In this document: piece by piece, positions 738-10,800 of the stretch | Layout: each line of letters starts with the position of its first letter | How positions within the stretch are numbered: the stretch's first letter is position 1 | Made by a program: the position numbers and the translations under genes | Assembly (NCBI GenBank): GCA_947383065.1 | Contig: CANDCB010000013.1 | Location: 1-10,800 of the forward strand | DNA from: an uncultured Bacillota bacterium | Lineage (GTDB): Bacteria > Bacillota_I > Bacilli_A > RF39 > UBA660 | Length of the DNA stretch: 10,800 bases | Direction of reading: 5' to 3' | Notes under the pieces: model-generated | What the model saw: the letters and a program-made list of their open reading frames with translations, nothing else | Told to the model about the DNA's origin: nothing | Databases searched by the model: none

Positions 738-755
738 AATAATGAGGTGGTAAAT

Positions 756-1928
756 GTGGAAAAAGTATTTAAAAACAAAAAATTAATGTTAGGGATGTTA
801 TTGGCACTAATATTAATAATTTCGGTAATAACAAGCATAGTTTTATTAAGTGGAAAGGATAATGAAAAAGATAGTGATACTTCTATAAATAATTCAGTTG
901 AAAAAGAACAAAAAAACAAAGAAACATATTTAGTAATATCAATTAACCCTAAAATTATGTTACATCTTGATAATGCTGGGAAGGTCATAGAATTATTTCA
1001 GTTAAACAAGGATGCTGTTATATTCACTAATGATGAACTTGAAAATTTAGATTTAGATAATGCTATAGATAAAATTGTTACTATAGCACAAGATAATGGA
1101 TATTTGAAAGATGCTAAAGACATTTCTGTTTCAGTTTTAAACAATAATGTTAATAGCGATACTACAACATATATGAATAAGGTTGTAGAACAACTAGAAA
1201 CAAAAGTATTAAATGTTAAAAAAGAAGAAATTAGTTCAGAAGAACAAAAAACTATTGAGAGCACTATTGAAAACTATGTAGAGAAAAAAGTTGAAGATAA
1301 TACTTCTACTGAAAAACCAGACAATAAACCAGTACCTACACAAACCCCTACAACAACTAAAAATATTAACATAACTGAAAAAATTCCTTTTTCTAGTAAA
1401 AACGAAGAAGAAGTAAATATGTTAAGAGGTACTACTAAAATATCTCAAGAAGGACAAGAAGGAACTAAAACAACTACATATAAAGTTACTTATAATAGTA
1501 ATGGCAAAGAAATATCACGTAGCAAGATTTCTGAAAAGGTAACCAAACAACCTGTTACTCAAATTACAAAAGTTGGCATAAGTGATTATAATATTAACAC
1601 TGATGTAATTAGTAGTAATGGTAGTGGGATGATTTGTTTTGAAAATCAATTAATTATTTATGAAGATGGTTATAAAGAATGTGACGAAAGCCAAGTTACA
1701 AATTATTTTGCTTCAATTACATTAAAAAATAAAGAATACGTTTATTATATAGGTAATACTGATAATAGAGATTTAGTAAATATTAAGTCATTATTATCTG
1801 TTAGTAATGGTAAAATAAATTATGGTGGTAATACCTATGTTCTTGATGGAAGAAGCGGCTCTAATACACCAATACCATTAACATCTACTCTTTGCTCAAA
1901 ATATGGTCTATCTTGTGGTAGTTGGTAA
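756..1928 (+). CDS. Membrane protein with RsgI-like extracytoplasmic domain (1)
   Basis: 390 residues from a GTG at 756, chosen because GAGGTGG (745-751) is well spaced for it; an in-frame GTG at 747 overlaps that site. A short basic N-terminus precedes one membrane helix (about residues 10-32), and the rest is predicted outside the cell. Residues about 58-135 (YLVISINPKI, then GKVIELFQLNKD, then LDNAIDKIVTIAQDNGYL) follow the middle domain of anti-sigma factors of the RsgI family. In RsgI the conserved Asn-Pro is an autoproteolysis site; here it is N64-P65. A Thr/Pro/Lys-rich linker follows, then a C-terminal domain with several cysteines. The cytoplasmic anti-sigma domain of true RsgI is absent, so sigma-factor control by this protein alone is unlikely. 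It is the first gene of a two-gene operon; the ligand and role are unknown. Confidence 0.65.
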   Translation: MEKVFKNKKLMLGMLLALILIISVITSIVLLSGKDNEKDSDTSINNSVEKEQKNKETYLVISINPKIMLHLDNAGKVIELFQLNKDAVIFTNDELENLDLDNAIDKIVTIAQDNGYLKDAKDISVSVLNNNVNSDTTTYMNKVVEQLETKVLNVKKEEISSEEQKTIESTIENYVEKKVEDNTSTEKPDNKPVPTQTPTTTKNINITEKIPFSSKNEEEVNMLRGTTKISQEGQEGTKTTTYKVTYNSNGKEISRSKISEKVTKQPVTQITKVGISDYNINTDVISSNGSGMICFENQLIIYEDGYKECDESQVTNYFASITLKNKEYVYYIGNTDNRDLVNIKSLLSVSNGKINYGGNTYVLDGRSGSNTPIPLTSTLCSKYGLSCGSW

Positions 1929-3040: not shown

Positions 3041-3415
3041 TTGTATTACTCTTTATTAGAATTATTATGGTATATCATTTATAAGATATTGATTATGAAT
3101 AATATTTTTGAAGAAGTTAAACAATATAAGAATTCTAGTATGAAATGGTTTGTCTTTGGTAGTAAAGAATATGGATATGATTATCTTATAGCAAGCAAAG
3201 AAATAGACGAAAGAAACAATTACATATCTAAACTTGCTGAAATAAAACGTATAAGACATCATGATTTTAGACATAGTTGTGCTTCACTTCTTATCAATAA
3301 TAATGTTAATGTTACAATGGTTGCTAAATATCTTGGACACACAAAAGTTGAAGAAACATTAAATACCTATTCACATATGTTTGATAGTGCTTTAGACCAT
3401 GTACTAGATGTATAA
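3041..3415 (+). pseudogene. 5'-truncated tyrosine recombinase (integrase C-terminal fragment)
   Basis: Only the C-terminal part of the catalytic domain of a phage or transposon-type tyrosine recombinase remains. Counted from 3041, it has the HxxR box in RHHDFRHSCASLLI (H74, R77), the later histidine in YLGH (H100) and the nucleophile in NTYSHM (Y110). The arm-binding and core-binding domains and the first catalytic arginine are missing, and 124 residues compares with about 350-400 in intact relatives. The open frame begins at a TTG with no ribosome site; the first ATG is at 3095. It lies right after the upstream operon's terminator, so it is probably untranslated and inactive. Its position beside the right repeat pair marks the integrase end of the element. 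Confidence 0.85.
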
Positions 3416-3959: not shown

Positions 3960-4043
3960 ATCTTATAAAGAGCGATGGAGGGACTAGCCCTATGAAATCG
4001 CACCAACCTATTAAATTAGGTGGTAAAGCTAGAACGATAAGAT
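3960..4043 (+). ncRNA. SAM riboswitch (S-box / SAM-I clan, compact)
   Basis: The S-box core is clear: AGAG, then TGGAGGGACTAGCCCTATGAA, CCAACC and AGGTGGTAAAGC, closed by P1 (ATCTTAT 3960-3966 with ATAAGAT 4037-4043). CTAGC (3984-3988) is complementary to GCTAG (4028-4032), as expected of the P2-loop to J3/4 pseudoknot. The P4 hairpin of typical SAM-I aptamers seems absent, so this could be a shortened SAM-I or a SAM-I/IV-like variant. It precedes a SAM synthetase gene, giving feedback control by the product. The pseudoknot strand also overlaps a possible antiterminator (4027-4034 with 4047-4054), consistent with SAM-induced termination. Confidence 0.9.
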
Positions 4044-4102: not shown

Positions 4103-4885
4103 ATGATTGAGAAAGTAAACCCATGTCATCCTGATAAGGTGGCAGATAGAATTGCTGGAGCTTTAGTTGATTTAGCATATTCTAAAAATGACAATTGTAA
4201 AATAGCAGTAGAAGTATTAATTGGTCATGGTAAATGTCATATAATAGCTGAAACTAGTGAAAATTTTGCAGTAGAAGAAGTTGACAAAATTGTGAAAAGG
4301 ATAGCAGGAGAAATTGAACTTGATTTAGTTGTAGTTAAGCAAGATGTTCATTTGGCAAATAATCAAAAAGGTCAAGTAAGATGTGGAGATAATGGTATTT
4401 TTAAAGGTGTTCCTTTAACAAAAGAGCAAAGAGAGTTATCAGCTATAGCTCATAACATTTTTGAAAAGTATCCTACGGATGGTAAATATATTTTGGATAA
4501 AGATAAGTTAATAATTTGCCAAAGTAATGCTAGTAATGAAGAACTTAGAGCATTATATCCTAATGCTATAGTAAATCCAATAGGTGAATGGACTGGTGGA
4601 ACAAATGTGGATACTGGTGCAACAAATAGAAAATTAGGTTCAGATATGGCAGATAGTATAACTGGTGGTGGCTTGCATGGTAAAGATTTATCAAAAGCTG
4701 ATGTTTCAATTAATATATATGCTTTTAAAAAAGCTCAAGAACTTAATAAAACTGTGGAATTAAGTTGTGCAATTGGTGATCAAATGATTGATAATATTCC
4801 ATATAGTGAAATCGTTAAACAAGCTAGAGAGTATATAAATAAAATAGGTGGGTTTGAAAAATTTGCGGAATGGGGACTTTATTAA
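4103..4885 (+). CDS. metK: Compact S-adenosylmethionine synthetase (MetK-like)
   Basis: Predicted to make S-adenosylmethionine from methionine and ATP in the cytoplasm. Active-site motifs of MetK are present: E3 and HPDK (9-12), matching the spacing of E. coli E8 and H14-D16; GDNG (95-98); GGTNVDTGATNRK (165-177), matching the D238, R244 and K245 segment; and GGGLHGKDLSKAD (188-200), with K194, K198 and D200 matching the later lysines and aspartate. It has 260 residues against about 380-400 in the family. The region between GDNG and NPIGEW is shortened, and the C-terminus stops soon after SCAIGDQ. Since the motifs are intact, this looks like a real short form and not a broken gene. AGGAGG lies just before the ATG, so the start is secure. 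The SAM riboswitch controls it, and a terminator overlaps its stop, so it is monocistronic. Confidence 0.8.
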   Translation: MIEKVNPCHPDKVADRIAGALVDLAYSKNDNCKIAVEVLIGHGKCHIIAETSENFAVEEVDKIVKRIAGEIELDLVVVKQDVHLANNQKGQVRCGDNGIFKGVPLTKEQRELSAIAHNIFEKYPTDGKYILDKDKLIICQSNASNEELRALYPNAIVNPIGEWTGGTNVDTGATNRKLGSDMADSITGGGLHGKDLSKADVSINIYAFKKAQELNKTVELSCAIGDQMIDNIPYSEIVKQAREYINKIGGFEKFAEWGLY

Positions 4886-5042: not shown

Positions 5043-5765
5043 ATGGAAAATAATTTAGAAATTTTAGCAATACAGCATAATAAAAATGATTTAAATGAAG
5101 CTTTGAATAGAATTAGTTCTCCTGGTTCAAGTTTGGTTTTATTTACAAATCTTTTTTGTAAATTAAAAATGGGAAATGAGATGTTAAGAGGTTCTTTATT
5201 TGATACAGCTTTATATAGCGAAAATGATAATCTGCTTATTCTATTAATGAATCATGGACCAATAAAAGTTGATGAATTAAGAGAATGTTTAGATGAGAAA
5301 AAGTTACCATATCATGAGGTGAGTTTTACACGTAACTTAAATGAAAGAAAAAAGAAACAGAATTTGCCACATTTATATTTTGCTCATGATTGTTCAAGTC
5401 TTGAAAAAGTATTTAAAAAGAGTGGGGAAAAAAATGAATTTAGGGTTGCTGAATATTATCCTTTTTTATCTAGTAGTTTAGACTTAGGTTATGTTTTTAG
5501 TATAGATAGTATTGATAATAATTATTTACCTTTAGAGGCTAGAGATTATTGTTCAATTGAAAAACAAGTATTTCGTGGTTTAATTAGATTAAATGGTAAA
5601 GTGATTTTACTTATGCATAATCAAGAAAATTCTATTAGTGCTACGCAAGTGGGAAAAATTATGAAAAAATATGGTTTTTATTGTACAATTTTAGAGGATA
5701 GTGACTTTTCTCTGCATCATTTAAAGGGTAGAAGGTTGAGAAAAATGCCTAAAAAACATTATTAA
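5043..5765 (+). CDS. Protein of unknown function
   Basis: 240 residues, no family recognised. There is no signal peptide or membrane helix. The first 110 residues look like a mixed alpha/beta domain (LEILAIQHN, LVLFTNLF, NLLILLMNHG). The middle contains AEYYPFLSSSLDLGYVFSID and GLIRLNGKVILLMHNQ, and the C-terminus is strongly basic (LKGRRLRKMPKKHY), which might bind nucleic acid or another polyanion. The ATG has only weak ribosome-site matches (GAAAG about 11 bases upstream), but an in-frame TAG at 5007-5009 and the lack of upstream ATGs limit alternatives. It has its own terminator and lies between metK and the modification operon in the same orientation, so a role in that system is possible but unproven. 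Confidence 0.7.
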   Translation: MENNLEILAIQHNKNDLNEALNRISSPGSSLVLFTNLFCKLKMGNEMLRGSLFDTALYSENDNLLILLMNHGPIKVDELRECLDEKKLPYHEVSFTRNLNERKKKQNLPHLYFAHDCSSLEKVFKKSGEKNEFRVAEYYPFLSSSLDLGYVFSIDSIDNNYLPLEARDYCSIEKQVFRGLIRLNGKVILLMHNQENSISATQVGKIMKKYGFYCTILEDSDFSLHHLKGRRLRKMPKKHY

Positions 5766-5893: not shown

Positions 5894-7234
5894 ATGAATA
5901 TTTTGGTAATTAATCCGCCTAATAAACCATTTACTAATAGTACTTTAATAGGTGAACCTTTAGATGTATTACAAATTGCTACAGTTATTAAAGAACGTTT
6001 TAGTAAAATTAATGTTCTTGATATGGATGTTCTTAGGATGGAAAATAATATAAATCAATATTTGGAAGATGAAAATATAATAGTTTTTGTTTATGATTAT
6101 CAAATTCCTTTACATACTTCAGCAACTATAAATAATATATATGAAATAATAAGGAATTTAAATAAAAAAGCAAAAGTTATAATGATTGGGAAAACTTCTT
6201 CTTATATTTATAAAGATTTTTTAGAAAATGGGATAGATATAGTTATTAAGGGTATTGCAGAAGATTTTATAAATGATGTTATTTCCAATGTAAATAATAT
6301 AAATAAATTAAAAAATATTCCTAATTTAGCATTTAAGGATAAAGGTAAAATTATTATTACTAAACAAGTTTTTAAAAGTAATAATTATTCTAAATTGCCT
6401 ATAGTTGAAAGAGATTTTATTGATTTAGCAAATTATATGGATACAAGAACAATTATAACTTCTCGCGGATGTAATGGATGTTGTAAGTTTTGTACTACAC
6501 CTTATTTTTTTAGGAAATGGAATGGAAAGTCTGCAAGAGTAGTAGTGAAAGAAATTGAGGTTTTAATAAAAAAATATAAGGCTAAACAAATTATGTTTTT
6601 GGATGATAACGCTATAGTTAATAAAGAACGGATGTTAAGAATATGTGAATTAATTAAGAAAAAAAATTTAAAGTGTTTGTTTGGAGTACTTGGAAGTATA
6701 AAGTGTTATGATAGAGATCTTTTAAAAATGATGTATAGTGTCGGTTTTAGATGGATTCATTTTGGTTTGGAGTCTGGAAGTTCTAAAATTTTAAAGAGTA
6801 TGAATAAAAATATGGATATTGCACAGGTAAAAGAAATTATAAAGGAAGTAAAGCAAATGGGTTATCGTGTTAGAACAAGTTTTATTTTAGATTATCCGGG
6901 AACTACTAAAGAAGATTTAAATAAAACTAGAGAATTATTAGGAGTTATTAAGCCTCATGAGGTAAGACTGCATTATTTAGCGTATCGTTATGGAACTCCT
7001 ATTAAAGAGGAATTTAATATTTTAAATAATACGCAATATATTCATAGCAATAAACCTAATGTTTTTAATTTGAAAATAATAGAAGAAGTAAAAAGGTTAG
7101 TAATTGATTTGAAAGAATATGGTTATGAAATTATTACTGATGATATAGATTGGAATAAATATAATAATCAAGATAAAAATGTTAAGATAGCTTCTTTTGT
7201 TCCGATAAAGTATGGGATGTGTTGGTATGAATAG
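5894..7234 (+). CDS. Radical SAM protein with B12-binding-like N-terminal domain
   Basis: 446 residues; AGAGGTGA is well spaced before the ATG. Residues about 1-140 resemble the Rossmann-like cobalamin-binding domain of B12-dependent radical SAM enzymes (ILVINPPN at the start, GEPLDVLQIATVIKE, VFVYDYQ, then AKVIMIGKTSS), but the DxHxxG motif that supplies the lower histidine ligand is not visible. The radical SAM domain follows, with C193-x3-C197-x2-C200 (in TSRGCNGCCKFCTTPYFF) to hold the 4Fe-4S cluster and cleave SAM to a 5'-deoxyadenosyl radical. Later it shows the family patterns QIMFLDDNAIV, RWIHFGLESGS and YRVRTSFILDYPGTT. The family includes methylases, methylthiolases and ring-forming enzymes; the reaction here is unknown. 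It is the first gene of the operon, overlapping the next by 8 bases. Confidence 0.85.
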   Translation: MNILVINPPNKPFTNSTLIGEPLDVLQIATVIKERFSKINVLDMDVLRMENNINQYLEDENIIVFVYDYQIPLHTSATINNIYEIIRNLNKKAKVIMIGKTSSYIYKDFLENGIDIVIKGIAEDFINDVISNVNNINKLKNIPNLAFKDKGKIIITKQVFKSNNYSKLPIVERDFIDLANYMDTRTIITSRGCNGCCKFCTTPYFFRKWNGKSARVVVKEIEVLIKKYKAKQIMFLDDNAIVNKERMLRICELIKKKNLKCLFGVLGSIKCYDRDLLKMMYSVGFRWIHFGLESGSSKILKSMNKNMDIAQVKEIIKEVKQMGYRVRTSFILDYPGTTKEDLNKTRELLGVIKPHEVRLHYLAYRYGTPIKEEFNILNNTQYIHSNKPNVFNLKIIEEVKRLVIDLKEYGYEIITDDIDWNKYNNQDKNVKIASFVPIKYGMCWYE

Positions 7235-8684
7235 AATAATAGGAATTACTGGAGGTATGGGATCTGGTAAAACGACTTTATCTAAAAAAATAATGCAAGA
7301 GAATGCTGATTTTATTTATATAGATGTTGATATTTTTAGACGTAATTTATTAAGAAATTCTGAATATGTTAATGAATTAAAAAAAGTAATACCTGAATTA
7401 AATAGTTATTATATGATAGATAGTTCTATTTTGAATAGATATATATATGGAAATGATGAATATATGAGAAGGTATAAAAAAATATTGTATAGATATTTAT
7501 TTAATTATTTAAGAACTTTTGAAGATAAGACAATATTAGTTGATTGGGCTTTAATTTTTAATGATAATTTGGAAGGATATTTTGATGAAATAATTTGTTT
7601 AGAAGCTAGTGAAAATGTTAGATTAGAGAGATTAAAAGATAGTGATTTAGATAAAAATGATATTTTAAAAAGATTTAGGTTGCAAACAATTTTAGATTGG
7701 GATGAGCGTAATTTAGATAATGTTTTATTTTTAAATAGTGAAAATGAAATTGATATGAATCAAATTAGGGAGTTTATTAATGGAATTTCTTGTAAATTTA
7801 CTTTACCTAATAATGAAGGGAAAGCAATTTGGGAGATAACACATAGATGTAATTATGGTTGCTCTTATTGTATATTTTCTTGTACTAAGAATTTTAAAGC
7901 ACAAGGTGAATTAACTACTGAAGAATGTTTTCATGTTATTGATGAATTATATAATAATGGTTTTAGGCATTTAAAAATTACGGGTGGAGAACCTTTTTTA
8001 AGAAAAGATATAATTGATGTTTTAAGATATGCTAGTACTAAATTAATTACTGATATTTCAACAAATGCTTCGTTATTAACAGAGGAAAAAATAAGGCAAT
8101 TAAATGAGTTAAGATTAAAAATGATACATGTAAGTTTAGATGGTAATTTAATTGAACATGAATCTGTAAGAGGGAAAAATACATATTGGCAGACTATAAA
8201 AGGTCTTGAAATGTTGAAATCGTCAACTAACAGAGTTCGTATTGGAGCAGTTATTCATGCTAATAATGAACGTAATTTAGAAGGTTTGGTAAAAGATTCT
8301 GAAAAACTTTTTGCTGATGAAATTATCTTTTCTATAATGGAACCTATATATGGACAAGATAGAAGTCTTTATAAAAAAAGACCAAATGAAGATTTAATTA
8401 ATGAATTAAATAAGTTGCAGGTATTATATGGAGGAAAAATTAAAGTAAATTATAATTTTGGTAAACAGACATATGTGGTTCATCGTTGCCCAGCTGGGGA
8501 TAAGTTTTTGTATATTAATAATTTGGGTCAAATAAGTCCATGTCCATGGATTCATGAAATTGATAAAAGTTGTATTTCTTCTTTGTCATTACGTAATCAA
8601 TCATTAGAAGAAATATTAAAAGATAAGAAACTCACCAAATTTTTAGAAGCTAAAAAAAGAGGATTGTGTTATGGGCAGATTTGA
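7227..8684 (+). CDS. Fusion of CoaE-like P-loop kinase and radical SAM/SPASM-like enzyme
   Basis: 485 residues from the ATG at 7227, where the frame begins MNRIIGITGGMGSGKTT just as dephospho-CoA kinases do; an in-frame ATG at 7212 would add only MGCVG. Residues 1-190 look like CoaE: Walker A G9-GMGSGKT16, YIDVDIFRR, LVDWALIFND, then a VRLERL and LDNVLFLN pattern. Residues about 200-485 are a radical SAM domain with C208-x3-C212-x2-C215, TGGEPFL (GGEP 253-256) and IHVSLDG. The tail has C421, C439, C449 and C481, like a reduced SPASM or twitch auxiliary-cluster domain, typical of peptide-modifying enzymes. I know no characterised enzyme with this fusion. It may phosphorylate one substrate and radical-modify the same or another. 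It overlaps both neighbours in the operon. Confidence 0.87.
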   Translation: MNRIIGITGGMGSGKTTLSKKIMQENADFIYIDVDIFRRNLLRNSEYVNELKKVIPELNSYYMIDSSILNRYIYGNDEYMRRYKKILYRYLFNYLRTFEDKTILVDWALIFNDNLEGYFDEIICLEASENVRLERLKDSDLDKNDILKRFRLQTILDWDERNLDNVLFLNSENEIDMNQIREFINGISCKFTLPNNEGKAIWEITHRCNYGCSYCIFSCTKNFKAQGELTTEECFHVIDELYNNGFRHLKITGGEPFLRKDIIDVLRYASTKLITDISTNASLLTEEKIRQLNELRLKMIHVSLDGNLIEHESVRGKNTYWQTIKGLEMLKSSTNRVRIGAVIHANNERNLEGLVKDSEKLFADEIIFSIMEPIYGQDRSLYKKRPNEDLINELNKLQVLYGGKIKVNYNFGKQTYVVHRCPAGDKFLYINNLGQISPCPWIHEIDKSCISSLSLRNQSLEEILKDKKLTKFLEAKKRGLCYGQI

Positions 8685-9480
8685 TAGTATTTATCTTTTT
8701 ACAACTGAAAATATTGCTGGTTATATGAGAGATTTAGATTTGACTGGTAAAAAAGTAGTAACTGTTACTGGGTCTACTGATCATATTATAAATATTGTTG
8801 CTAGAGGTGCAAAAGAAATTCTTACGTTTGATATAAATCCACGAGTTAAAGAGTATATGGATTTAAAGTTGTCAGCAATAAGAACACTTTCTTTTAAAGA
8901 GTTTGTATCATTTTTATTATTTGATTCACCTATGAGTTTTGCTTATGAAATAATTAAAGATTTACCTCTTTTAGAAAGTAGTAAAAGGTATTGGTTAAAT
9001 TTATTATCAACTTTTAATAACGATGGGTTGTTATTAAAATATTCGTCAATTTTTAATTTAAAATATTTTAATCCAAATAGTAAATTATGGCAAAATTTAT
9101 ATTTAGATGAACAAACTTATCTGGGTGTTCAAAAAAGATTAATGGATGTTGAAATTAAATATGTAAATTGTGATTTAAAAAAATTAGATTTAAAAGAAGA
9201 TTTTGATTATATGTTTTTGTCAAATATATCAGATTATATAAAAGATATGTATGAAGGTGGTCTTATAAGTTATAGGGAACTAATGAAAAAATTTCTTATG
9301 AAAGTGAAAACAATTTATATGGCTTATTTATATGATATAGGTAATAATAATCCTCGTAGTGAAATTGATGATTTAAATAATGTTAGTAGTTTATTTAGTA
9401 ATTATGAAGTAAAAAAATTTAAAAGTGCGCTAGAAACAAATGAATCTAAAGAAGATGGCGTAATAATTTTAAGGAAGTGA
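8671..9480 (+). CDS. DUF3419/BtaA-like SAM-dependent transferase
   Basis: 269 residues; GAGG is seven bases before the ATG, and the gene overlaps the previous one by 14 bases. Residues 12-75 (TTENIAGYMRDLDLTGKKV, then VTVTGSTDH at 30-38, FDINP at 53-57, and LSAIRTLSFKEF) follow the DUF3419 family, whose known member BtaA moves the 3-amino-3-carboxypropyl group of SAM to diacylglycerol. The VTVTGS loop and D54 fit SAM binding, and D179-YMFLSNISDY resembles the segment after the Rossmann core. It could be an aminocarboxypropyl transferase or a methyltransferase; sequence alone does not decide. No membrane segment is seen. The setting, with two radical SAM enzymes and a ligase, points to a protein or peptide substrate more than a lipid. 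Confidence 0.7.
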   Translation: MGRFDSIYLFTTENIAGYMRDLDLTGKKVVTVTGSTDHIINIVARGAKEILTFDINPRVKEYMDLKLSAIRTLSFKEFVSFLLFDSPMSFAYEIIKDLPLLESSKRYWLNLLSTFNNDGLLLKYSSIFNLKYFNPNSKLWQNLYLDEQTYLGVQKRLMDVEIKYVNCDLKKLDLKEDFDYMFLSNISDYIKDMYEGGLISYRELMKKFLMKVKTIYMAYLYDIGNNNPRSEIDDLNNVSSLFSNYEVKKFKSALETNESKEDGVIILRK

Positions 9481-9486
9481 TTAAAA

Positions 9487-10071
9487 ATGTCAGAGAGTAG
9501 AAATTGTGGTGAGAGTAGGTCTTATACACCTTCTTATGGACCTTATTCTGCATATTTTGGATCTGAGAGTAGACAAAGTTCTGAGAGTAGAGGGCTTTAT
9601 GAAAGTGTTGTTTTAACAAGTGAAAGTCATTTGGCTAGTGAAAGTGTATTTGAACCTTCTGAAAGTAGGTTACCTTCTGAAAGTTGTTCAGACGGATTAA
9701 GAAAATTTGGCAAAGTATCTGCTATGTTTGGTCAATTAAGATCATCGATATTAGTTAGGAATCAAGCTCCTGTTCAGTATAATACATTTGATGAAATTGA
9801 TACTTTAATAGAGCAACTAGAAATATCTATTCCTGTTCTTCAAAAATTAGAAGAAAGAGGAACTAGATATGAAAAAGCTTTACAAAGAAGAAAAGATCAA
9901 TTAGAAAGATTAAGACGAATCAAAGAAGATCGTATAATTAGTGAAATAGAAAAAGAAAGTGATTTATTTGAAGAAAAAATAGAAGGAATAAAGAGATTAA
10001 CTAAAAGCCCACTATCACCATTTGCTTCGAGGAGTTTTGAAAGTCATGATAGTGGGGAAAGTAGATGGTAA
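9487..10071 (+). CDS. ES-repeat protein, candidate substrate or carrier of the operon enzymes
   Basis: 194 residues, no known family. AGGAAG ends at the previous stop codon and is well spaced for the ATG. Residues 2-67 hold nine (S/G/Y)ES(R/H/V/C) motifs with glutamates at 3, 9, 27, 33, 39, 46, 52, 59 and 65, mostly 6 or 7 apart, with an 18-residue Tyr/Pro/Gly-rich gap (SYTPSYGPYSAYFG) after the second. Two more end the protein (E185, E191, then RW). Between them, residues about 70-175 form a hydrophobic then highly charged helical region, probably a coiled coil. There are only two cysteines and no signal peptide or membrane helix. The surrounding genes are enzymes, so it is the likely substrate: repeats as modified sites or loading points, coiled coil as recognition domain. 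A structural role is the main alternative. Confidence 0.8.
   Translation: MSESRNCGESRSYTPSYGPYSAYFGSESRQSSESRGLYESVVLTSESHLASESVFEPSESRLPSESCSDGLRKFGKVSAMFGQLRSSILVRNQAPVQYNTFDEIDTLIEQLEISIPVLQKLEERGTRYEKALQRRKDQLERLRRIKEDRIISEIEKESDLFEEKIEGIKRLTKSPLSPFASRSFESHDSGESRW
9490..9687 (+). repeat. Nine-copy ES-motif repeat array
   Basis: Each motif is encoded by GAG AGT (first four copies) or GAA AGT (last five), and the serine codon is AGT in every case. A tenth and eleventh copy (GAA AGT) lie at about 10036-10062 at the 3' end of the gene. The 6- to 7-codon spacing is irregular, so this is a protein-level repeat with some duplication and not a simple DNA satellite. Confidence 0.75.
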
Positions 10072-10072
10072 A

Positions 10073-10800
10073 ATGGAAAACATCTATAAAAATTTACATT
10101 CTAACCAAAAAATATTGATTTATGAAATGTTAAAAAGAGGTATTAATGTTGAAATAGTTAATGAACAATTAGAGCTTATTAAAGCTTCTTATAAGGGACA
10201 TGAAGAATTAATTTATGATCGTGATTCATCGATTGTTCCTTATAGTTTATCTGTTTTAGCAGGAGATAAAGGTCTTACTAAACAATTACTTTTTGCAAGT
10301 GGAATAAGTGTTCCAACAGGAGCTGTATTTAGTGCTAATTATCAAGTGGATTTTATTAAAGCTTTTGAAGTGTTAAATTGTTCTGTTGTTTTAAAACCAG
10401 TTTTTGGTTCACACGGTTATGATGTATATACTAATCTTAAAACAAAGGATGATGTCATAGAAGCGTTAGCTAAAATAATAAGGTCAAAAGGTCCCACAGC
10501 TAAAGTATTAATTGAGGAATATTTTGAAGCTCAAGAATATCGTGTTTTTGTAACTAAAAATCGTGACTTTGCGGTTTTGTTACGTGATCCTGCTCATGTT
10601 TATGGAAATGGAATAAATACTATTTCTGAATTAATTATGAGGGAAAATTATCGTCGAATGAACCCAAGAACAAATGCTTTATGTGAAATATTAATTGATG
10701 AAGAAATGTTTCGTTTTATATCTAAGAAAGGATTAAGTATGGATTATATTCCTAGAAATGGAGAAAAAGTGTATTTAAGACCAAATTCTAATGTTGCTAT
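10073..10800 (+). CDS. GshF/cyanophycin-synthetase-like ATP-grasp ligase (partial, 3' end beyond window)
   Basis: 242 codons are visible, open to the window end, starting one base after the repeat protein's stop. It matches the ATP-grasp half of bifunctional glutathione synthase GshF and the related domain of cyanophycin synthetase: residues 63-83 (AGDKGLTKQLL, ISVPTG), VVLKPVFGSHG (105-115) with K108 for ATP, EEYFEAQEYRVFV (148-160), RDPAHVYGNGINTISELI (171-188) and a segment ending in GEKVYLRPNSN. The glutamate-cysteine ligase half of GshF is absent. These enzymes activate a carboxylate with ATP and join it to an amine, so it could add amino acids to glutamate side chains or the C-terminus of the repeat protein, like RimK or LysX. 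An ordinary small-molecule ligase is also possible. Confidence 0.85.
   Translation, partial: MENIYKNLHSNQKILIYEMLKRGINVEIVNEQLELIKASYKGHEELIYDRDSSIVPYSLSVLAGDKGLTKQLLFASGISVPTGAVFSANYQVDFIKAFEVLNCSVVLKPVFGSHGYDVYTNLKTKDDVIEALAKIIRSKGPTAKVLIEEYFEAQEYRVFVTKNRDFAVLLRDPAHVYGNGINTISELIMRENYRRMNPRTNALCEILIDEEMFRFISKKGLSMDYIPRNGEKVYLRPNSNVA

What the first reader, a model, noticed from the sequence alone, without database searches (positions are those of the whole stretch)
5894..10800. Candidate new modification system built around an ES-repeat protein
Five consecutive overlapping or near-touching genes encode two different radical SAM enzymes, a CoaE-like kinase domain, a DUF3419-type SAM transferase, a repeat protein and a GshF-like ATP-grasp. 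The repeat protein has eleven ES motifs and no enzymatic motif. Known parallels in logic are the His-Xaa-Ser system (repeat target plus two radical SAM proteins) and amino-group carrier protein pathways (ATP-grasp loading a glutamate). Neither has this gene set, and I recognise no described system that matches.
Basis: partly seen in the sequence, partly recalled or inferred. Interest (0 to 1): 0.93.

Follow-up and report, generated by a model that had tools for sequence, protein, structure and literature searches.

The report
Glu-Ser repeat protein modification cassette
A conserved six-gene cassette in Bacilli encodes a protein whose predicted floppy tails carry many repeated Glu-Ser motifs, next to five enzymes that likely decorate those motifs chemically; if so, it would be a new variety of protein-modification system.

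Summary
Window 5894-10800 carries five overlapping or near-touching genes: a B12-type radical SAM enzyme, a CoaE-kinase/radical SAM/SPASM fusion, a DUF3419 protein, a Glu-Ser (ES) repeat protein and a cyanophycin-synthetase/GshF-type ATP-grasp cut by the window end. Seven related loci add a methyltransferase. Of 291 genomes in the relative's family, 7 carry the cassette, and all 7 have an ES-rich protein between DUF3419 and ATP-grasp. In those 291 genomes the CoaE-rSAM fusion and the close ATP-grasp subfamily were seen only there; DUF3419 relatives are common elsewhere. In 50 de-redundant ES proteins, 404 ES sites (3-13 each) are mostly [S/G]-E-S-R, often 6 apart. A model puts 11 of the window's 12 ES in disordered tails around a helical hairpin. 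Ser in ES uses both AGN and TCN codons, so the residue itself is kept. Most likely the ES sites are modified by the neighbouring enzymes; the chemistry (SAM-derived aminocarboxypropyl on Ser, ATP-grasp amide closure, radical C-H steps) is inferred and no product is known. Ten searches of openly licensed papers found no description.

The parts
5894..7234 (+). B12-type radical SAM enzyme, 446 aa; C-x3-C-x2-C and a C-terminal KYGMCWYE tail invariant in 5 aligned copies
7227..8684 (+). CoaE-like P-loop kinase fused to radical SAM/SPASM enzyme, 485 aa from the start shared with relatives (490 aa from 7212)
   Evidence: Walker A, CN(Y/F)xCxxC and C-x12-G-x4-C in 120 of 120 listed proteins, one of them the window's own
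8671..9480 (+). DUF3419 (BtaA-type) protein, likely a SAM-dependent transferase, 269 aa
   Evidence: PF11899 39.1 bits over its cut-off of 28.2, first third of the profile only
9487..10071 (+). Glu-Ser repeat protein, 194 aa, likely target of the enzymes
9487..9786 (+). N-terminal tail, residues 1-100, predicted disordered, 9 ES motifs
   Evidence: pLDDT 39-56 by blocks; positions
9787..10002 (+). predicted helical hairpin core, residues 101-172, one ES
   Evidence: pLDDT 93-96 over residues 101-170, helices 101-124 and 126-172
10003..10068 (+). C-terminal tail with 2 ES motifs, ending in GESRW
   Evidence: ES-x-W end in 58 of 83 homologues
10073..10800 (+). ATP-grasp ligase of the cyanophycin synthetase/GshF type, cut by the window end (343-351 aa in the six complete aligned relatives)

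Best explanation
The cassette encodes a Glu-Ser repeat protein and five enzymes that likely modify it repeatedly, with each Glu-Ser dyad in its predicted disordered tails the probable site of attack. Shown: the gene set and order, its conservation in seven further genomes, the constant ES dyads in shifting surroundings, and intact signature motifs in the enzymes checked. Inferred: the helical hairpin docks the enzymes and presents the tails. [quoted passage not shown] The ATP-grasp would then activate a carboxylate with ATP and form an amide, most simply between the Glu side chain and the new ACP amine (a Glu-ACP-Ser bridge) or by adding an amino acid. The methyltransferase and the two radical SAM enzymes would methylate or cross-link the result, the adjacent Arg perhaps included, and the CoaE-like kinase would phosphorylate a hydroxyl on the substrate. 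The modified protein itself, rather than small excreted peptides, is the likely product.
For: Co-occurrence: 7 of 7 cassette genomes among 291 have an ES-rich protein at the same place. 12 of 120 listed CoaE-rSAM proteins share the exact longest-contig length with one of 83 ES proteins, against a mean of 0.43 and a maximum of 3 in 120 shifted controls. Motif: 404 ES sites in 50 de-redundant proteins; position -1 is S or G in 307, +1 is R in 281; the middle of [SG]xxR windows is ES in 245 of 291, and the next commonest pair occurs 5 times; spacing 6 in 107 of 354. Tails predicted disordered, core helical. Ser of ES is encoded by AGN in 53 and TCN in 13 of 66 sites over 8 loci. Enzyme motifs intact in 120 of 120 listed fusions. 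PMC10685587 (passages): a gene annotated as DUF3419 was identified by homology as a putative betaine lipid synthase, whose two domains are an ACP transferase and a SAM methyltransferase; PMC10491745 (passages) names BtaA as an ACP transferase. Both enzyme types are in this cassette; that DUF3419 is the ACP-transferase part is recalled. PMC9062424 (passages): one radical SAM enzyme modifies a repeated TVGG motif several times in one precursor.
Against: No mass, structure or activity data exist. No Pfam RRE/PqqD-type match in the enzymes scanned (the NCBIfam lists for the rSAM enzymes were capped at 25). DUF3419 matches only the first third of the Pfam profile, has no PDB relative by sequence (nothing, nothing under E 0.78), and my fold model failed (pLDDT 32.7, 2 sequences), so ACP transfer is not shown; DUF3419 relatives occur widely without the cassette. 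SR is as strongly over-represented as ES in these proteins (z 22.2 and 20.0), so Arg may be part of the site or the real target. Ser codons at ES are biased to AGT (47 of 66, against 69 of 164 other Ser in the same genes, P 7e-5), so repeat growth at DNA level contributes to the pattern. 108 of the 120 listed CoaE-rSAM proteins have no length-matched ES protein; short contigs and divergent ES proteins (one was missed by the profile) may explain this but were not tested.
Confidence: 0.6

Rival explanations
1. The ES protein is a multi-core RiPP precursor: the ES units are modified and then cut out as short peptides that are exported or used as a cofactor.
For: Repeated motifs as in TvgA (PMC9062424, passages); the SPASM-type enzyme is nearest StsB in NCBIfam and SkfB in the PDB; in L011 a C39-peptidase ABC exporter follows the cassette and in L012 an ABC-2 transporter pair does.
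Against: No protease or exporter is shared by the loci: in L001, L009 and L013 the neighbours scanned have none and none was seen by eye in the ORF lists; the contigs of L010 and L023 are short. A predicted helical hairpin separates the two tails. No family match to a precursor.
Confidence: 0.2
2. The ES protein is a carrier or scaffold that is not itself permanently modified; the enzymes build a small molecule on it or beside it.
For: CoaE, BtaA-type DUF3419 and cyanophycin/GshF-type ATP-grasps are mostly small-molecule or polymer families (recalled); carrier logic is known for amino-group carrier proteins (recalled).
Against: A carrier needs one attachment point, but the proteins have 3-13 ES sites. 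The C-terminus, the usual attachment point of carriers (recalled), is not an ES-x-W end in 25 of 83 members, a few of which are truncated.
Confidence: 0.15
3. The system is a graspetide pathway: the ATP-grasp closes lactones or lactams directly between Glu and Ser side chains of neighbouring repeats.
For: Glu and Ser are usual graspetide ring partners (recalled); repeated cores occur in one cluster of graspetide precursors (PMC8939145, passages); successive ES motifs are often 6 apart.
Against: The ATP-grasp belongs with cyanophycin synthetase and GshF; none of its 14 and 10 listed NCBIfam matches is named as a graspetide ligase.
Confidence: 0.03
4. The kinase-rSAM fusion is a viperin-kinase relative that makes a modified nucleotide for defence.
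For: PADLOC matches: pVip 71.4 bits, pVip-kinase 41.4 bits over residues 2-306, VakA 18.9 bits; also PDC-M51A 39.8 bits for gene 1 and mad2 46.3 bits for the methyltransferase (these may reflect shared enzyme folds).
Against: StsB scores higher in NCBIfam (103.8 bits against viperin 58.2); C-x12-G-x4-C of SPASM type is in 120 of 120 listed homologues; the kinase part is CoaE-like; no PADLOC match for DUF3419, the ES protein or the ATP-grasp.
Confidence: 0.02

Closest known systems
TvgA/TvgB (poly-cyclopropylglycine RiPP)
   Same: a peptide-modifying radical SAM enzyme acts on a motif repeated several times in one ribosomal precursor (PMC9062424, passages)
   Different: TVGG motif, one rSAM enzyme, an Fe/ketoglutarate oxidase and two transporter proteins; no kinase, DUF3419, ATP-grasp or B12-rSAM in the cluster as described there
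His-Xaa-Ser system (HxsA/B/C/D)
   Same: repeat-bearing target with two radical SAM proteins (recalled)
   Different: HxsB model scores 57.6 against a cut-off of 370 bits; motif is ES-R, not HxS; gene set differs
Betaine lipid synthesis BtaA/BtaB (BTA1)
   Same: ACP transferase plus SAM methyltransferase; a DUF3419-annotated gene was identified as a putative synthase (PMC10685587, passages)
   Different: lipid substrate; here the DUF3419 match covers only profile positions 6-131 of 385 at most and the methyltransferase is a generic class I type
Cyanophycin synthetase and GshF (ATP-grasp domain)
   Same: same ATP-grasp subfamily, 183 bits to 7wac over 270 residues
   Different: stand-alone 343-351 aa ligase; below the equivalog cut-offs and matching only that part of the models
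Amino-group carrier protein pathway (LysW/LysX)
   Same: ATP-grasp beside a small protein (recalled logic)
   Different: LysX model 37.8 against 275.6 bits; many internal sites instead of one C-terminal residue
Prokaryotic viperin-kinase fusions
   Same: kinase domain in front of a radical SAM domain (pVip-kinase, 41.4 bits)
   Different: SPASM-type cysteines and a CoaE-like kinase here

Membership tests
RiPP pathway with radical SAM/SPASM maturase | SPASM/Twitch-type enzyme next to a small ribosomal partner | tested here: met
   SPASM 23.6 bits over its cut-off of 21.5; ES protein in 7 of 7 cassette genomes
RiPP pathway with radical SAM/SPASM maturase | RRE/PqqD domain in or near the enzymes | tested here: inconclusive
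   none in the Pfam lists; the NCBIfam lists were capped (25 of 30 and 25 of 88) and a divergent domain could be missed
RiPP pathway with radical SAM/SPASM maturase | protease and/or exporter conserved with the precursor | tested here: not met
   C39-ABC in L011 and ABC-2 pair in L012; none in the neighbours scanned of L001, L009 and L013; L010 and L023 contigs too short to tell
RiPP pathway with radical SAM/SPASM maturase | covalently modified ribosomal product | not testable with these tools
   needs mass spectrometry
His-Xaa-Ser system | HxsB-type maturase and HxS repeats | tested here: not met
   HxsB 57.6 of 370 bits; motif is ES-R
Graspetide | graspetide-clade ATP-grasp | tested here: not met
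   best families are cyanophycin synthetase, GshF and NAGGN synthetase
Amino-group carrier protein | conserved C-terminal attachment residue and a LysX-type ligase | tested here: not met
   25 of 83 lack the ES-x-W end, a few of them truncated; LysX 37.8 of 275.6 bits
DUF3419 (PF11899) | score over the curated cut-off | tested here: met
   39.1 (window), 43.0 (L001) and 45.8 (G272) bits against 28.2
BtaA-type ACP transferase | transfer of 3-amino-3-carboxypropyl from SAM | not testable with these tools
   fold model failed; no PDB relative
Cyanophycin synthetase or GshF | equivalog cut-off and partner domains | tested here: not met
   228.1 of 850 and 199.1 of 425 bits; ATP-grasp part only
Prokaryotic viperin | viperin equivalog score | tested here: not met
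   58.2 of 180 bits, NF038283

The most novel reading that the evidence does not exclude
Each Glu-Ser dyad is turned into a SAM-derived side chain: an ACP ether on Ser, tied back to Glu by the ATP-grasp and elaborated by two radical SAM enzymes. The cell would thus make a protein bearing up to a dozen copies of a non-ribosomal amino acid, possibly the first ACP modification of a protein and a new kind of multi-site scaffold.
Probability: 0.18. Interest if true: 0.92.

Novelty: new variant of a known kind. Interest (0 to 1): 0.77.

Why it matters
If true, it joins five enzyme types not known to me to work together on one protein, with a target whose modification sites can be read off its sequence. 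It would give DUF3419 proteins a protein substrate, extend kinase-rSAM fusions beyond viperins, and make a testable model from a gene set with no function that I could find described. It is not rare in public data: 120 full-length CoaE-rSAM fusions were listed out of 400 matches at E <= 1e-40, and 83 ES proteins were found (both searches scored only the candidates sharing most words).

Tried and rejected
MetK as part of the cassette: the short MetK upstream in the window and L001 is the only match in G001 and lies elsewhere in G260 and G272, so it is probably the housekeeping enzyme. Viral, phage or plasmid origin: no relative of the CoaE-rSAM or ES protein in viral contigs, none of the ES protein in phages; in plasmids 370 records match the radical SAM part, none over 80% of the query and none at 60% identity. 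L008 (G191:C3) was dropped as a false hit, by eye a RelB/DinJ-like ORF. G067 (L024) was dropped from the cassette count: two tandem radical SAM ORFs without the CoaE part. A purely DNA-level explanation of the repeats: rejected because Ser codons are of both AGN and TCN kinds, though the AGT bias and the window's 12 of 12 AGT suggest some repeat growth by DNA copying. Fold of the ES core: no meaningful PDB match, best E 1.7. DUF3419 fold: model unusable.

The searches behind 'no described system' were made, in a library of openly licensed PMC papers only; most subscription papers are not covered.
Full report
WHAT IS THERE. The window's second half holds five genes on the + strand, overlapping or nearly touching (gaps -8, -14, +6, +1 bases). 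Gene 1 (5894-7234) is a radical SAM enzyme nearest B12-type families such as TIGR04014, ApyD and BchE, all far below their cut-offs; nearest PDB sequence OxsB, E 4e-18. Gene 2 (7227-8684) is a CoaE-like P-loop kinase fused to a radical SAM/SPASM enzyme. Gene 3 (8671-9480) is a DUF3419 protein. Gene 4 (9487-10071) is the Glu-Ser repeat protein, with no match in Pfam, NCBIfam or PADLOC. Gene 5 (from 10073) is an ATP-grasp that runs off the window. No whole genome is held for the window.

RELATIVES. The repeat protein found 14 homologues in the protein database as a single query and 83 with a 20-row alignment. In species genomes the alignment found one locus, L001, in an uncultured Bacilli MAG. 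Of 291 genomes drawn from that family, the repeat-protein profile matched 6: G001, G143, G153, G191, G260 and G272; G191 also has a second, false match. All 6 have the same gene order, with a sixth gene, a class I SAM methyltransferase, after the ATP-grasp. Limits: the contig of G260 ends inside the CoaE-rSAM gene, so its B12-rSAM gene cannot be seen; the B12-rSAM of L011 and the CoaE-rSAM of L012 are frameshifted in these assemblies, and I cannot say whether that is assembly error or decay. The flanks differ from locus to locus by eye, apart from MetK and a 240-aa protein shared by the window and L001.

ENZYMES WITHOUT THE REPEAT PROTEIN? A CoaE-rSAM profile matched 8 of 291 genomes at E <= 1e-35: the 6 above, G121 and G067. 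G121's contig starts inside the gene and goes on with DUF3419, an 87-aa ES-rich protein that the repeat profile had missed, ATP-grasp and a methyltransferase cut by the contig end. G067 has two tandem radical SAM ORFs without the CoaE part in another setting. So 7 of 7 cassettes have an ES protein. The ATP-grasp profile matched 9 of 291 at E <= 1e-30: the same 7 at E <= 2e-159, and G097 and G158 with best E of 5e-48 and 4e-42. DUF3419 differs: 112 of 291 genomes match at E <= 1e-6, the 7 included. In 20 non-cassette loci that I fetched, no relative of the ES protein, the rSAM enzymes, the ATP-grasp or the methyltransferase reached E 1e-10, and the only ORF over the ES-density mark was a 63-aa fragment with 2 ES. 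Wider draws, which overlap the first, gave 6 of 385 in the order (E <= 1e-55), 3 of 395 in the class (E <= 1e-35: G001, G191 and G067) and 1 of 11 in the genus of G272, namely G272 itself. In the protein database 400 proteins score E <= 1e-40 with the CoaE-rSAM profile; the 120 listed cover the full query at 59% identity or more. Of these 120, 12 share their exact longest-contig length with an ES protein; 120 shifted controls gave a mean of 0.43 and a maximum of 3. This is indirect, and 108 of 120 have no such partner.

THE REPEATS. The window protein has 12 ES dipeptides; 4 of 20,000 shuffles of its composition reach 12. After removing near-duplicates from the 83 database proteins, 50 remain with 404 ES sites, 3 to 13 each, median 8. 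Before ES stands S (217) or G (90); after it R (281), then S 26, H 21, N 16. Counting ES sites selects for ES, so the fairer test is the [SG]xxR window: its middle is ES in 245 of 291 and the next pair occurs 5 times. In a 58-row alignment E3, S4, R5, E9, S10, R11, E27 and S28 are at least 90% constant, so Arg is nearly as constant as Glu and Ser in the first two motifs; over all 83 proteins SR is over-represented as strongly as ES. Successive ES are 6 apart in 107 of 354 cases (184 of 571 before de-redundancy). All 83 begin with Met, 0-2 residues and ES, but in L012 the repeats are at the C-terminal end only. The ES-x-W end is common (58 of 83) but not required. An AlphaFold2 model with 58 rows gives helices 101-124 and 126-172 at high confidence and low-confidence tails, which puts 9 ES motifs in the N-terminal tail, 2 in the C-terminal tail and 1 in the helix. 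In 8 loci Ser of ES is AGN in 53 and TCN in 13 of 66 sites. AGN and TCN are not joined by single silent changes, so selection is on the residue; but AGT is favoured at ES (47 of 66 against 69 of 164 other Ser), and all 12 in the window are AGT, which points to some repeat growth by DNA copying. Together: the ES-R motif is held while position, number and surroundings drift. That is the pattern of a short recognition or modification site in a disordered tail.

THE ENZYMES LOOK ACTIVE. Walker A, the radical SAM CN(Y/F)xCxxC and the SPASM-type C-x12-G-x4-C are in 120 of 120 listed CoaE-rSAM proteins. The ATP-grasp keeps KPxxGSHGYD in 7 of 7 and IIE(I/V)NT in the 6 complete copies. The DUF3419 proteins keep E13, S35, D37, D54, K66, D179, S184 and N185 in 29 of 29 aligned sequences, cassette and non-cassette; reading this as a SAM-binding pattern is recalled knowledge. 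Only the first third of PF11899 is matched (as a control the family rings in 1 of 14 well-known genomes), and neither the 7-row nor the 29-row profile finds a PDB relative.

HOW IT LIKELY WORKS. The simplest reading is that the ES sites are the substrate. PMC10685587 (passages) describes a DUF3419-annotated gene identified as a putative betaine lipid synthase, whose domains are an ACP transferase and a SAM methyltransferase; PMC10491745 (passages) lists BtaA among ACP transferases. Serine offers the same kind of hydroxyl as the lipid (recalled). A cyanophycin/GshF-type ATP-grasp joins carboxylates to amino groups (recalled), and ACP brings a new amine and carboxylate beside the Glu side chain. 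This would explain why Glu and Ser are kept as a pair. The radical SAM enzymes, kinase and methyltransferase are assigned only by type. I give 0.6 to 'ES sites of this protein are modified by these enzymes and the protein is the product', and about 0.18 to the specific ACP chemistry.

COMPARISON AND NOVELTY. It works like repeat-target radical SAM systems (TvgA/TvgB, PMC9062424, passages; His-Xaa-Ser, recalled), but fails the membership tests for His-Xaa-Ser, graspetides, amino-group carriers, cyanophycin synthetase and viperins. For RiPPs it meets the pairing of maturase and small ribosomal partner, but no RRE was seen and no protease or exporter is shared: L011 has a C39-ABC exporter and L012 an ABC-2 pair, while the scanned neighbours in L001, L009 and L013 have neither. 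PADLOC gives viperin and other defence-model matches to the radical SAM and methyltransferase genes, which I read as shared folds. Ten literature searches found no description of this gene set; the library is openly licensed papers only. I rate it a new variant of a known kind, with a real chance that the chemistry is new.

Noticed in passing
window 3960-4043 (+): SAM riboswitch (RF00162, 66.4 bits) just upstream of a short 260-aa MetK (4103-4885); same arrangement in L001 4202-4285.
   Followed up: partly
window 4103-4885: A 260-aa MetK, much shorter than the 377-position TIGR01034 model; its relative is the only match in G001 and is present, unlinked to the cassette, in G260 and G272.
   Followed up: partly
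L075 and L076 (G021:C25, G161:C7): Large tandem arrays of DUF3419-like genes: 16 and 22 hits within 20 kb; DUF3419 relatives occur in 112 of 291 family genomes. Function unknown.
   Followed up: partly
L011 5041-7155: C39-peptidase ABC exporter directly downstream of the cassette in one genome.
   Followed up: partly
L012 14763-15431: Fused ferredoxin-type and thioredoxin domains about 0.9 kb upstream of the cassette in one genome, a possible electron source.
   Followed up: no
L024 8833-12951: Two tandem radical SAM genes with neighbours that look by eye like glutamine synthetase, sugar kinase and, further on, HPr kinase; possibly a separate peptide-modification system.
   Followed up: no
window 747-1928 and 1957-2997: Two proteins with the RsgI middle domain, one also with a G5 domain.
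   Followed up: no
window 3041-3415: C-terminal fragment of a phage-type integrase.
   Followed up: no
window 5043-5765: Unknown 240-aa protein between MetK and the cassette; among the loci compared, a homologue sits at the same place in L001 only.
   Followed up: partly
window 5894-7234, end: KYGMCWYE tail with a Cys near the very C-terminus, invariant in 5 aligned copies of the B12-type radical SAM enzyme, reminiscent of tail motifs in the names of other B12-rSAM families.
   Followed up: no
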